Below, one piece after another: positions 217 through 4,161 of a stretch of 8,139 nt of DNA. Location: positions 1 to 8,139 of the forward strand of contig JAUVKE010000102.1 in the NCBI GenBank assembly GCA_030592105.1, in the 5' to 3' direction. Position 1 is the first letter of the stretch; each line of letters starts with the position of its first letter. Both the position numbers and the translations under genes were made by a program. The DNA is from Desulfobacteraceae bacterium. GTDB taxonomy: Bacteria > Desulfobacterota > Desulfobacteria > Desulfobacterales > BuS5. The notes below the pieces were generated by a model that worked only from the letters and a program-made list of their open reading frames with translations, was not told the origin of the DNA and did not search any database.

Positions 217-1146
217 ATGAAAAAACTTACAAGAAGAAATTTTTTTGGAATCAGTTTGAAAGTTGCTCTGTTGATGGGGCTTTCCCCATCTGCAATTCCA
301 AAGATTGCGAGTGCTTTTAAACAGCTTGCCGGAGGGAATGCCCCTGTTCTATGGCTCCAGGGGCAGAGTTGTTCAGGCTGCTCAGTCTCTTTGCTTAATT
401 CTGATGCTCCAGGTCCCGCGGAAATACTGACAAGTTACATCTCTTTGCTTTTTCATTCGACCCTTTCAACTGCAACAGGGGCAATCAGTATGGATATAAT
501 CAACCGGACAATAGAAGCCGGAGATTTTTTACTGGTGGTTGAAGGGAGTATTCCGGCAGGGATGCCGGAAGCCTGTATTGTTGGGGGGGAGAAGATAACC
601 GAACAGGTTCAAAGGGCTGCAATAAGGGCCAAAGTCGTTATTGCAAACGGAACTTGTGCTGCATTTGGCGGAATTCCTGCTGCAGAAAATAATCCAACCG
701 GAGCTCTTTCCGTTTCAGAATTTCTTGAAGAAAAAGGGATCTCCACACCTGTTATAAATCTTCCCGGCTGCCCCAGTCACCCTGACTGGCTTGTGGGAAC
801 CCTTGTCCATGTTTTAAAATTTGGATTTCCTCCCCTGGATAAAATGGGAAGGCCGAAAATGTTTTATTCAAAACTTATCCATGACCAATGTCCCCGTTAC
901 CCTGATTATGAAAGGGAAAATTTTGCAAAAACCTTTTCAGAGCAGGGGTGTCTTTTTAAGCTCGGGTGTTTGGGGCCGGTTACTTATGCTGATTGTACAA
1001 TTCGTCATTGGAATTCAGGAACATCCTCCTGCATAAAATCAGGGGGGGGATGTATTGGCTGTGCTTCTGAAAATTTTGCAAAAAATTTATCCTTTCCTTT
1101 TTACACAAAAAACCAAATGCAAAATAAAAAAGGGGGGTATAAATGA
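217..1146 (+). CDS. Periplasmic [NiFe] hydrogenase small subunit (Tat-exported)
   Basis: Electron-transfer subunit of a group-1 type uptake [NiFe] hydrogenase, which oxidises H2 in the periplasm. From ATG 217 it is 309 aa. A Tat signal occupies about residues 1-34 (TRRNFF at 5-10, then a hydrophobic stretch). Three FeS clusters can be read out: proximal C52, C55, C147, C185; distal H222, C225, C245, C251; medial C260, C272, C279, C282. C272 stands where standard enzymes have Pro, so the medial cluster should be [4Fe-4S], as in [NiFeSe] enzymes. The C-terminus is hydrophilic with no membrane anchor, so the mature protein is probably soluble or held by a partner. Its stop overlaps the MCP start (ATGA, 1143-1146), and its last codons carry the MCP ribosome binding site. 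The family is certain; the subgroup and gene symbol are not. An in-frame ATG at 202 would add five residues. Confidence 0.95.
   Translation: MKKLTRRNFFGISLKVALLMGLSPSAIPKIASAFKQLAGGNAPVLWLQGQSCSGCSVSLLNSDAPGPAEILTSYISLLFHSTLSTATGAISMDIINRTIEAGDFLLVVEGSIPAGMPEACIVGGEKITEQVQRAAIRAKVVIANGTCAAFGGIPAAENNPTGALSVSEFLEEKGISTPVINLPGCPSHPDWLVGTLVHVLKFGFPPLDKMGRPKMFYSKLIHDQCPRYPDYERENFAKTFSEQGCLFKLGCLGPVTYADCTIRHWNSGTSSCIKSGGGCIGCASENFAKNLSFPFYTKNQMQNKKGGYK
1131..1137 (+). promoter_or_regulatory. Ribosome binding site of the MCP gene, inside hydrogenase gene
   Basis: AGGGGGG lies 5 bases before the MCP ATG at 1143 and is embedded in the last codons of the small-subunit gene. With the ATGA stop/start overlap it indicates translational coupling of the two genes. 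Confidence 0.7.
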
Positions 1147-2654: not shown

Positions 2655-4161
2655 AATAATAAATATTGATCCAATCACAAGAATAGAGGGGCACCTTGCA
2701 ATTCGCATAGAAGTTGAATCAGATTTAATTACAAAGGCATACTGCTCAGGTGAAATGTTCAGGGGATTTGAAACAATTCTAAAAGGAAGAGACCCTTTGG
2801 ATGCTCAACAGATCACCCAGAGAATTTGCGGAGTATGCCCTGTTTCCCATGGAATAGCCTCAATTTTGGCTCAGGATCAGGCATATGGAATTATCCCTCC
2901 GAAAAATGGCCGGATTTTGAGAAATTTGATTATGGGGGCTAATTATCTCCAATCTCATATTCTTCATTTTTATCATCTTGCAGCTTTGGATTTTGTTGAT
3001 ATAGCAGCCATCTTAAACTACACAGGTAATGACCCTGTTTTAAACAATCTTAAAGGATGGGTAAATTCTGAAATTTCTTCAAAATCGGTCTTTCCGGCAG
3101 CCCCTTTTCTCCCCAGATATAAGGGTGAATATCTAACAGATGATGAACTCAATTTCACTGCCATTAGAAATTACCTTGAAGCCCTGGAAATGCGCGCTGT
3201 TGCCCACAGGGCCGGGGCAATATTTGCCGGTAAACTCCCCCATGCTGCATCCCTTGTTCCGGGCGGAGTAACAGAAAAAGTAACAGCAGATAAAATTGCA
3301 GCATATAAATCCCTTATTAACAAATTAAGAACCTTTATAGATAATGGCTATTTAAATGATGTGGCTGGAGTTGCAAAAACATTTCCTGATTATTTTAAAC
3401 TTGGAAAAGGGTGCGGTAATTTTCTTGCGTATGGTGTTTTTCATGAATCAGATGATAGCTCAGAGCTTTTATTCCCCCCAGGAATAATTACAAATGGGAA
3501 GTTGAGTAATTTTAATGCTTCAGGAATTACTGAAGATATTAGATATTCTCTTTATTCCTCAGGTTCAGGGATTCATCCATCCAGGAGCGAAACCATTGCC
3601 TCACCCCATAAAAGGGACGCATATTCATGGATTAAAGCACCAAGATATAATTCCATGGTCATGGAAGTCGGGCCATTGGCAAGGGTAATGGTTGCATATT
3701 TAAATGGTGAAAATTTTAAATTAAAAAAGCTTGTTGATGATCTTTTGTTCGCTCTTGACAAAAAGCCGGGTGATCTTGTCTCTGTTATGGGAAGACATGC
3801 AGCAAGAGCAATAGAAGCCAAGATTGTTGCAGATAAATGTGCCCAATGGGTGGATGAACTTGTTCCCGGCGAACCATCTTTTAAAGATTTTAAAATACCT
3901 GAAACAGGAACCGGTGTGGGATTGACAGAAGCCCCAAGGGGGGCATTGGGGCACTGGCTTACTATAAAAAAACAAAAAATAGAGGGATACCAGTGTGTAG
4001 TACCAACAACATGGAACTGTTCTCCGAGAGATGATTCCGGGAATCCCGGCGCTGTGGAACAGGCATTAATTGGAACCCCGGTTAATGACAGTGAAAATCC
4101 CCTGGAGGCCGCAAGAATCGTCAGGTCTTTTGACCCGTGCATAGCATGTGCAGTACATTGA
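2647..4161 (+). CDS. [NiFe] hydrogenase large (catalytic) subunit lacking C-terminal extension
   Basis: Catalytic subunit of 504 aa carrying the Ni-Fe(CN)2CO site that splits H2. Visible family motifs: RIEGH at 12-16 (its Glu is the conserved proton-path residue), L1 motif RICGVCPVSHG at 59-69 with C61 and C64, TEAPRGALGHW at 427-437, and L2 motif DPCIACAVH at 496-504 with C498 and C501. All four Ni ligands are Cys; there is no in-frame selenocysteine codon. The reading frame stops directly after His504, which is the residue exposed in other hydrogenases only after a protease removes about 15 residues. This protein therefore needs no such step, as in H2-sensing HoxC/HupV and CooH types. It has no export signal and should cross the membrane bound to the Tat-signalled small subunit. 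Placement after the MCP gene, rather than next to the small subunit, is unusual. The family call is certain; a sensory role is inference. Confidence 0.96.
   Translation: MGKIINIDPITRIEGHLAIRIEVESDLITKAYCSGEMFRGFETILKGRDPLDAQQITQRICGVCPVSHGIASILAQDQAYGIIPPKNGRILRNLIMGANYLQSHILHFYHLAALDFVDIAAILNYTGNDPVLNNLKGWVNSEISSKSVFPAAPFLPRYKGEYLTDDELNFTAIRNYLEALEMRAVAHRAGAIFAGKLPHAASLVPGGVTEKVTADKIAAYKSLINKLRTFIDNGYLNDVAGVAKTFPDYFKLGKGCGNFLAYGVFHESDDSSELLFPPGIITNGKLSNFNASGITEDIRYSLYSSGSGIHPSRSETIASPHKRDAYSWIKAPRYNSMVMEVGPLARVMVAYLNGENFKLKKLVDDLLFALDKKPGDLVSVMGRHAARAIEAKIVADKCAQWVDELVPGEPSFKDFKIPETGTGVGLTEAPRGALGHWLTIKKQKIEGYQCVVPTTWNCSPRDDSGNPGAVEQALIGTPVNDSENPLEAARIVRSFDPCIACAVH

What the first reader, a model, noticed from the sequence alone, without database searches (positions are those of the whole stretch)
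217..4161. Hydrogenase small subunit, heme chemoreceptor and large subunit in one overlapping operon: a candidate H2-chemotaxis sensor
An MCP with a periplasmic CxxCH motif is encoded between the two subunits of a Tat-exported [NiFe] hydrogenase, overlapping both genes. No cytochrome electron acceptor is encoded next to it. Known enzymes of this class hand electrons to a c-type cytochrome; here the heme-bearing receptor is the obvious local acceptor. The proposal is that the hydrogenase and MCP form a complex in which H2 oxidation reduces the MCP heme and alters CheA signalling, giving hydrogenotaxis. This differs from HoxBC/HupUV sensing, which is cytoplasmic and works through a histidine kinase. 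I do not know of a described system with this layout.
Basis: partly seen in the sequence, partly recalled or inferred. Interest (0 to 1): 0.93.

Follow-up and report, generated by a model that had tools for sequence, protein, structure and literature searches.

The report
Hydrogenase-coupled heme receptor for hydrogen taxis
A hydrogen-splitting enzyme and a membrane receptor that carries a heme-attachment motif are encoded as a tight gene trio kept together in several bacterial phyla, and the pair is predicted to sense hydrogen gas and would likely steer swimming cells along hydrogen gradients.

Summary
Observation confirmed: a Tat-type [NiFe] hydrogenase small subunit, a CxxCH-bearing MCP and the large subunit form an overlapping trio, followed by hypC and hypF. 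The linkage is no local accident. An MCP-only search of species genomes gave 78 loci; hydrogenase genes lie beside 62 of 64 MCPs of the window's CxRCH type. Searching instead with the large subunit gave 73 genes: those lacking the usual C-terminal maturation peptide have the sensor next door in 32 of 36, those with it in 0 of 37. Lack of that peptide is a published trait of the H2-sensing regulatory hydrogenase HoxBC. The MCP's periplasmic domain co-varies with the hydrogenase (r about 0.8) but not with its own signalling domain (0.12). Outputs are swapped: mostly MCP, also CheA-like and hybrid histidine kinases. The modelled domain is a Cache fold with the heme helix placed as in published heme-Cache sensors; Met73 and CxxCH are lost together in a heme-less clade. 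Best reading: an exported hydrogenase is the H2 co-receptor of the transducer, likely passing electrons to its heme. Complex, heme reduction and H2 taxis are untested; heme is not universal. My searches listed no paper describing this layout.

The parts
217..1146 (+). [NiFe] hydrogenase small subunit (HydS), Tat signal (RR at 232-237), no C-terminal membrane anchor seen
   Evidence: Pfam PF01058, PF14720; nearest solved relatives are NiFeSe hydrogenase small subunits; ligand residues conserved
1143..2654 (+). Transmembrane chemoreceptor (MCP) with periplasmic heme-Cache-like sensor domain
   Evidence: Pfam MCPsignal, HAMP; AlphaFold2 model of residues 1-235, mean pLDDT 91.8; Cache-domain matches
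1215..1730 (+). Periplasmic sensor domain (about residues 25-196)
   Evidence: model secondary structure; co-varies with the hydrogenase subunits
1359..1361 (+). Met73, predicted distal axial ligand of the heme
   Evidence: invariant in 75 of 75 aligned heme-motif receptors; replaced in all 6 heme-less receptors (read); position comparable to Met60 of GSU0935 (PMC8396549, passages)
1587..1601 (+). CIRCH heme c attachment motif, on a short helix between two strands
   Evidence: sequence; helix 147-152 between strands 136-144 and 161-170
1851..2555 (+). HAMP (residues 237-266) and MCP signalling domain (residues 317-471)
2647..4161 (+). [NiFe] hydrogenase large subunit (HydL), Cys-type active site
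   Evidence: Pfam PF00374; NCBIfam NF033181 680 bits, cut-off 600
4132..4158 (+). C-terminus DPCIACAVH followed at once by the stop: no C-terminal maturation peptide
   Evidence: the same state in the sensor-linked relatives
4396..4617 (+). hypC, hydrogenase maturation chaperone
   Evidence: Pfam PF01455, TIGR00074
4667..6973 (+). hypF, carbamoyltransferase for active-site synthesis
   Evidence: TIGR00143 813 bits

Best explanation
The trio encodes an exported-type (Tat-signal) [NiFe] hydrogenase without the usual maturation peptide together with a membrane receptor bearing a heme-attachment motif, and the hydrogenase likely acts as the receptor's H2-detecting co-receptor, predicted to pass electrons from H2 to the receptor heme so that the cell would swim along H2 gradients. 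Shown: the genes, their overlap, their linkage across phyla, the missing peptide, conservation of CxxCH and Met73, the Cache-type model, co-variation of sensor domain with hydrogenase, the swapped outputs. Inferred: HydLS folds in the cytoplasm, is exported by Tat and docks on the periplasmic Cache domain; H2 is split; electrons run through the three clusters to the heme; reduced heme binds Met73 and oxidised heme releases it, as published for the Geobacter heme MCPs; the change moves TM2 and HAMP and alters CheA activity. In the heme-less clade docking itself, or cluster redox state, would have to carry the signal. Attraction rather than repulsion is a guess.
For: MCP-first linkage: HydL or HydS lies beside 62 of 64 CxRCH receptors at 78 loci, and beside none of the 12 matched C[LM][EG]CH receptors. 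Hydrogenase-first: sensor adjacent in 32 of 36 peptide-less HydL, 0 of 37 peptide-bearing; 23 of 26 against 0 of 37 after dropping HydL identical to those in loci L001-L084. The missing peptide is a published trait of the regulatory hydrogenase (PMC10073562, passages). Distance correlations in 47 loci: HydL-HydS 0.88, HydL-sensor 0.82, HydS-sensor 0.77; HydL-signalling 0.17, HydS-signalling 0.21, sensor-own signalling domain 0.12; shuffled maxima 0.12-0.17. Output swaps: CheA-like kinase in L120, L124, L126, hybrid histidine kinase in L162, L163. Order changes but the trio stays: LSM in 58 of 60 loci, SML in 1 plus the window, SM with reversed L in 1. CheA dimerisation domain in 50 of 50 relatives' genomes against 7 of 14 control genomes. 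Fold and heme helix. Met73 and CxxCH lost together.
Against: On the HydL tree the peptide-less, sensor-linked rows are essentially one clade, so peptide loss and sensor linkage are about one event, not many. Six of 32 hydrogenase-found sensors have no heme motif. Genomes G699 and G700 (Omnitrophota draw) hold the hydrogenase but no sensor at E 1e-10. Linkage could reflect shared regulation only. In 10 of 48 trio genomes one PF00374 place only was found and in one none, so a separate H2-consuming [NiFe] enzyme was not always seen (completeness of these drafts not shown). No complex could be modelled; the window's own genome is not held.
Confidence: 0.72

Rival explanations
1. General redox or energy receptor: the MCP senses periplasmic redox state like GSU0935 or DcrA, and the hydrogenase is merely one electron source or is co-regulated with it; H2 is not the specific cue.
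For: Heme MCPs of this architecture are published redox sensors (PMC8396549, passages); related receptors with C[LM][EG]CH and no hydrogenase beside them exist.
Against: The sensor domain co-varies with the hydrogenase almost as its two subunits do with each other; the receptor type beside the hydrogenase differs from the free type at the heme motif (CxRCH in 23 of 23 heme MCPs found through the hydrogenase); heme-less receptors still sit beside the hydrogenase.
Confidence: 0.14
2. The receptor senses a ligand unrelated to electrons and the hydrogenase is an ordinary uptake enzyme; co-transcription simply turns on swimming when H2 metabolism is on.
For: Cache domains are thought usually to bind small ligands (PMC12889525, abstract); genes in one operon need not form a complex.
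Against: Peptide-bearing relatives have no such receptor (0 of 37); the trio is kept through changes of order and of output domain; Met73 and CxxCH are invariant in the 75 aligned heme-motif receptors.
Confidence: 0.07
3. The heme protein is chiefly a membrane anchor and electron conduit for hydrogenase respiration, with signalling secondary or vestigial.
For: No C-terminal anchor is seen in HydS and no cytochrome gene lies beside it; uptake hydrogenases need an electron acceptor (general knowledge).
Against: One heme motif only; MCP signalling domain found in 74 of 75 receptors; a heme-less clade keeps the linkage; the outputs scanned are MCP or kinase domains.
Confidence: 0.05

Closest known systems
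Regulatory hydrogenase HoxBC (HupUV) with histidine kinase HoxJ, [NiFe] group 2b
   Same: Two-subunit hydrogenase without C-terminal maturation peptide, paired with a signalling protein, used for H2 sensing (PMC10073562, PMC6978683, passages)
   Different: HoxBC is described as cytoplasmic and acts through a soluble kinase on gene expression; here HydS has a Tat signal, the partner is a transmembrane receptor with a heme motif, mostly an MCP, and the closest solved enzymes are of NiFeSe type
[FeFe] hydrogenase group C2, 'chemotactic (putative)' of HydDB
   Same: A hydrogenase proposed to signal through methyl-accepting chemotaxis proteins (PMC5037454, table passage)
   Different: [FeFe] instead of [NiFe] enzyme, role given as undetermined; no exported [NiFe] enzyme with a heme receptor
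Heme-Cache (sCache_heme, DUF3365/Tll0287) receptors such as GSU0582 and GSU0935, and the c-heme MCP DcrA
   Same: Cache fold with CxxCH on a helix inserted between the third and fourth strands; in GSU0935 a His/Met heme with redox-linked Met switch and MCP output (PMC12889525 abstract and passages; PMC8396549 passages)
   Different: The word hydrogenase occurs 0 times in the main text of either paper; none of 75 receptors here matches the Pfam profile of that family at E 0.001
Periplasmic NiFeSe / group 1b uptake hydrogenases
   Same: Closest solved sequences, Tat small subunit, cysteine at HydS position 277 as in 139 of 143 rows (that other [NiFe] enzymes have proline there is recalled)
   Different: Window HydL has a Cys codon in the active-site motif and no C-terminal peptide
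MCP cluster in a published [NiFe]-hydrogenase neighbourhood table
   Same: A gene-neighbourhood analysis of [NiFe]-hydrogenase large subunits lists a cluster of 87 MCP genes near them (PMC12727194, table passage), so such proximity has been tabulated before
   Different: The passages seen do not discuss it as a sensor, name heme, or tie it to peptide-less hydrogenases; I did not read the whole paper

Membership tests
Group 1b-like periplasmic [NiFe] hydrogenase | Large subunit profile above curated cut-off | tested here: met
   NF033181 680.3 bits against 600
Group 1b-like periplasmic [NiFe] hydrogenase | Tat-exported small subunit | tested here: met
   RR motif in the window HydS and in 128 of 143 HydS; the 15 without it lie beside peptide-bearing HydL
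Group 1b-like periplasmic [NiFe] hydrogenase | C-terminal peptide removed on maturation, as in standard enzymes | tested here: not met
   HydL ends at CAVH
Group 1b-like periplasmic [NiFe] hydrogenase | HydDB class assignment | not testable with these tools
   HydDB classifier not available
Regulatory hydrogenase (group 2b, HoxBC/HupUV) | Large subunit lacks C-terminal peptide | tested here: met
   trait from PMC10073562
Regulatory hydrogenase (group 2b, HoxBC/HupUV) | No export signal, cytoplasmic | tested here: not met
   Tat RR motif at 232-237
Regulatory hydrogenase (group 2b, HoxBC/HupUV) | Partner is a HoxJ-type soluble histidine kinase | tested here: not met
   Partner in the window is a transmembrane MCP
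Regulatory hydrogenase (group 2b, HoxBC/HupUV) | Group 2 phylogenetic position | not tested
   No group 2 reference sequence was put in the tree
sCache_heme (DUF3365/Tll0287) sensor | Cache fold | tested here: met
sCache_heme (DUF3365/Tll0287) sensor | CxxCH on a short helix inserted before the last strand | tested here: met
   helix 147-152 between strands 136-144 and 161-170
sCache_heme (DUF3365/Tll0287) sensor | Match to Pfam PF11845 | tested here: not met
   0 of 75 receptors at E 0.001; window none at 0.1
sCache_heme (DUF3365/Tll0287) sensor | Covalently bound heme c seen in the protein | not testable with these tools
   needs spectra
Methyl-accepting chemotaxis protein | HAMP and MCPsignal domains | tested here: met
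   MCPsignal in 74 of 75 and HAMP in 59 of 75 relatives
Methyl-accepting chemotaxis protein | CheA in the same genome | tested here: inconclusive
   Window genome not held; CheA domain in 50 of 50 genomes of relatives
[FeFe] hydrogenase group C2 | [FeFe] catalytic subunit | tested here: not met
   PF00374 [NiFe] large subunit

The most novel reading that the evidence does not exclude
This is the first molecular H2 chemoreceptor: an ancient, many-phyla class of enzyme-coupled receptors in which an exported, unprocessed [NiFe] hydrogenase is a catalytic co-receptor that injects electrons from H2 straight into the heme of a Cache sensor, flipping a methionine ligand, and plugs interchangeably into chemotaxis, CheA-like and hybrid histidine-kinase outputs.
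Probability: 0.5. Interest if true: 0.94.

Novelty: new variant of a known kind. Interest (0 to 1): 0.87.

Why it matters
Swimming towards H2 has been reported for a methanogen (a passage of PMC4266047 citing Brileya 2013; the 2013 paper is not held), and none of the rows listed by my searches names a receptor for it. H2 is a main currency between syntrophic anaerobes. A defined gene trio, present in culturable bacteria, makes the question directly testable. It would also add an exported, membrane-coupled class to the sensory hydrogenases, of which HoxBC is described as cytoplasmic, and would mean that a clade of enzymes that looks like group 1b uptake hydrogenase, and would be counted as energy metabolism in genome surveys, is a set of H2 sensors.

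Tried and rejected
Own-genome search: no genome is held for the window. Sequence searches of the PDB with the receptor, with the sensor profile A3 and with a receptor of the free type found no heme-sensor relative; GSU0582, GSU0935 and Tll0287 are not among the 50 structure rows shown, which says nothing either way. Second hydrogenase-MCP trio L158: its HydL was found in 1 of 395 genomes, its own, at E 1e-110, so its spread is unknown. Test for independent origins of peptide loss: 2 changes on the tree, 1 independent pair on starred branches and 2 on all, no power. Rfam on the window: nothing at gathering score. Promoter and terminator scans no better than shuffles. The flanking repeat, searched in the loci fetched by then: no match. 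'No cytochrome next door' dropped as an argument because 35 of 37 peptide-bearing relatives lack one too. Arg151 as a mark of linked receptors: the counts are circular, since the groups there were made by that residue; I use instead the linkage of each motif type and the receptors found through the hydrogenase. Literature for a described [NiFe] hydrogenase-MCP system: 25 of 72 papers listed; 6 of 7; 25 of 52; 4; 0; 6; 12; 11; nine papers were opened for passages, none read whole; the one trace is an MCP cluster in a table of PMC12727194. Rows dropped: mirror-tree used 47 loci (short, split or missing genes left out; L011, L028, L044 by name); the HydL tree used 127 distinct of 138. Limits of the hydrogenase-first count: 1,146 genomes (395, 240, 14, 246, 251), at most 3 or 6 first-look candidates scored per genome where more existed, and the centre genomes were themselves MCP carriers.
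Full report
WHAT IS THERE. The window is an 8139-base contig whose genome is not held. It encodes, on the + strand, a [NiFe] hydrogenase small subunit, an MCP, a large subunit, hypC, hypF, then a cupin protein and a DUF2784 protein. The first three overlap: HydS and MCP by ATGA at 1143-1146, MCP and HydL by 8 nt. HydS starts best at 217 (GGAG at 204-207; read). 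It has a Tat RR motif and no C-terminal membrane segment that I could see; its nearest solved relatives are NiFeSe hydrogenase small subunits. HydL scores 680 bits on NF033181 (cut-off 600); its active-site motif is DPCIACAVH and the stop follows at once. The MCP has one CxxCH, CIRCH at residues 149-153. In a protein search with its sensor region, the first 60 of 120 listed relatives all carry CxxCH near that position.

LINKAGE, MCP FIRST. I searched species genomes with patterns from the sensor domain only (GSLERGEM and DC[IV]RCHxxW[KE]). Of 78 loci, 64 matched receptors have CxRCH, 12 have C[LM][EG]CH, and 2 are cut before the motif. HydL or HydS lies beside 62 of the 64. The two exceptions, L005 and L038, come from genomes that carry the same kind of hydrogenase elsewhere (63% and 51% identical HydL, L079 and L080), and L080 has a receptor of its own next door. 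Of the 12 others, 11 (L064, L069-L078) have no hydrogenase in the stretch held, which is short for some, and the twelfth, in L053, lies over 4 kb from a trio that has its own CxRCH receptor. In the 11 genomes of those loci, HydL hits were peptide-bearing in three (L081-L083), the separate trio L084/L158 in one, unclassified fragments in two (G003, G012), and absent or barely above threshold in five. The record titles of linked loci span Desulfobacterota, Omnitrophota, Verrucomicrobia, Planctomycetes, Riflebacteria, Chloroflexi, Sumerlaeota, Hydrogenedentes and Magnetococcales. One pattern contains the motif, so motif conservation in this set is partly built in; linkage is not.

LINKAGE, HYDROGENASE FIRST. 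HydL was searched in 395 phylum-mates of Desulfobacter vibrioformis (35 with a match at E 1e-130, 44 genes) and in 240, 14, 246 and 251 genomes of four other phyla (2, 5, 8 and 13 with a match at E 1e-120, 29 genes); only the best few candidates per genome were scored. I fetched all 73 neighbourhoods. In 36, HydL ends at the motif without the usual extension of about 15 residues; a sensor-domain protein lies beside 32 of them. In 37 the extension is present and 0 have the sensor (Fisher p 1e-16). Leaving out HydL identical to those of loci L001-L084: 23 of 26 against 0 of 37. All 23 heme-bearing MCPs among the 32 have CxRCH; 6 MCPs have no heme motif; 3 are di-heme kinases without the arginine. 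The four misses are L121, whose contig ends some 440 bases beyond HydS (its genome has a distant MCP with CGRCH elsewhere, L161), and three Omnitrophota loci (L132-L134). The genome of L132 has receptors elsewhere; those of L133 and L134 (G699, G700) showed none at E 1e-10, a real exception unless the drafts are incomplete. On a quick tree of 127 HydL the peptide-less rows are nearly one clade, so peptide loss and sensor gain count as about one event kept for a long time, and the p-value overstates independence.

WHY A SENSOR. [quoted passage not shown] In 47 loci, pairwise distances of the receptor's sensor domain follow HydL (r 0.82) and HydS (0.77) almost as the two subunits follow each other (0.88). 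The receptor's signalling domain follows HydL and HydS weakly (0.17, 0.21, just above the shuffled maxima) and its own sensor not at all (0.12, inside the shuffled range). So the sensor domain evolves with the enzyme and the output has been exchanged; saturation of signalling-domain distances could lower those values. Exchange is seen directly: L120, L124 and L126 have a di-heme version of the sensor on a kinase with Hpt and HATPase_c, CheA-like by eye (Hpt of L120 is below Pfam's cut-off), and two genomes of the Omnitrophota draw carry a second CIRCH sensor on a hybrid histidine kinase away from the hydrogenase (L162, L163). The order is L-S-MCP in 58 of 60 loci, S-MCP-L in L001 and the window, and S-MCP with L reversed in L032; the trio survives these rearrangements. 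HydS and the receptor gene overlap by 4 nt in 15 and lie within 50 nt in 53 of 61 loci. A more distant trio, L158 (HydL about 35-37% identical, no peptide, receptor with CLRCH), sits in a Desulfuromusa draft genome. A CheA domain is encoded in 50 of 50 relatives' genomes tested and in 7 of 14 controls.

MECHANISM. I commit to this: HydLS is matured without proteolysis, exported by Tat, and docks on the Cache domain; H2 is oxidised; electrons pass the three clusters to the heme; Met73 binds the reduced heme; the helix shift reaches HAMP and changes CheA activity, so that H2 would act as a cue, likely an attractant in sulfate reducers. Everything after the gene anatomy is inference. In the heme-less clade a contact or cluster-redox signal would have to serve, as is discussed for HoxBC-HoxJ, whose exact mechanism is called unsettled (PMC6978683, passages). 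Two or more [NiFe] large-subunit places (some of them pieces of one gene) occur in 37 of 48 trio genomes, one in 10, none in one, so a separate H2-consuming [NiFe] enzyme is common but not shown in each; [FeFe] enzymes were not searched.

NOVELTY. HydDB lists [NiFe] 2b (histidine kinase), 2c (diguanylate cyclase) and [FeFe] C2 'chemotactic (putative)'; the word chemotaxis occurs once in that text, under C2 (PMC5037454, passages). A neighbourhood survey tabulates an MCP cluster of 87 genes near [NiFe] large subunits without, in the passages seen, discussing it (PMC12727194). Eight library searches listed no paper whose title or abstract describes such a system; two of these lists were capped, and subscription papers are mostly not held. 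I file it as a new variant of a known kind: sensory hydrogenase and heme MCP are each known; their exported union is not described in what I could search.

Noticed in passing
window 1-80 and 4227-4306: An 80-nt direct repeat, 94% identical, flanks the hydrogenase-MCP trio on both sides, as if the block had moved or been duplicated at its ends; no match in the loci fetched by then.
   Followed up: partly
L130 2397-4058 (-), L137 7523-9115, L138 7482-9146, L139 2389-4017 (-), L140 1643-3985 (-), L141 2144-4126 (-): Receptors beside the hydrogenase that have lost both CxxCH and Met73: a heme-less form of the system in the Verrucomicrobia and Planctomycetes draws.
   Followed up: partly
L137, L138, L139 (HydS); also L081-L083, L123, L153: One cysteine of the small subunit's first CxxC pair is Asp or Glu, in three heme-less planctomycete trios and in some peptide-bearing hydrogenases.
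   Followed up: no
L162 1-2136 (-), L163 1261-3636: Same sensor domain with CIRCH on hybrid histidine kinases in genomes that also have the MCP form.
   Followed up: partly
L158 3896-7941 (-): Distant second hydrogenase-MCP trio without maturation peptide; found in 1 of 395 phylum genomes, its own.
   Followed up: partly
L024 4512-13215: Two divergent peptide-less hydrogenase pairs and two receptors side by side in one Verrucomicrobia draft genome.
   Followed up: no
L035 end and L004 start: Two contigs of one draft genome share 55 bases inside the receptor gene; upstream in L035 frames that look (by eye) like hypD and hypE precede the receptor and no HydS is found there. Could be an assembly branch.
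   Followed up: partly
L088 4964-8476 (-): Peptide-bearing hydrogenase that branches near the base of the sensory clade and has a four-heme ORF beside it: a possible picture of the ancestral enzyme.
   Followed up: no
P0062, P0097, P0112: Receptor relatives (43-45% identical sensor region) are named from Candidatus Magnetomorum and Magnetoglobus; their gene context was not seen.
   Followed up: no
L011 10001-11026: In the Desulfosarcina cetonica draft the receptor frame stops after HAMP (342 aa) beside an open hydrogenase pair; truncated gene or sequencing error.
   Followed up: no
G054:C472:5932-6990 and G048:C54:1836-2894: Two further [NiFe] large-subunit frames in trio genomes are read through one TGA, perhaps selenocysteine; not examined.
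   Followed up: no
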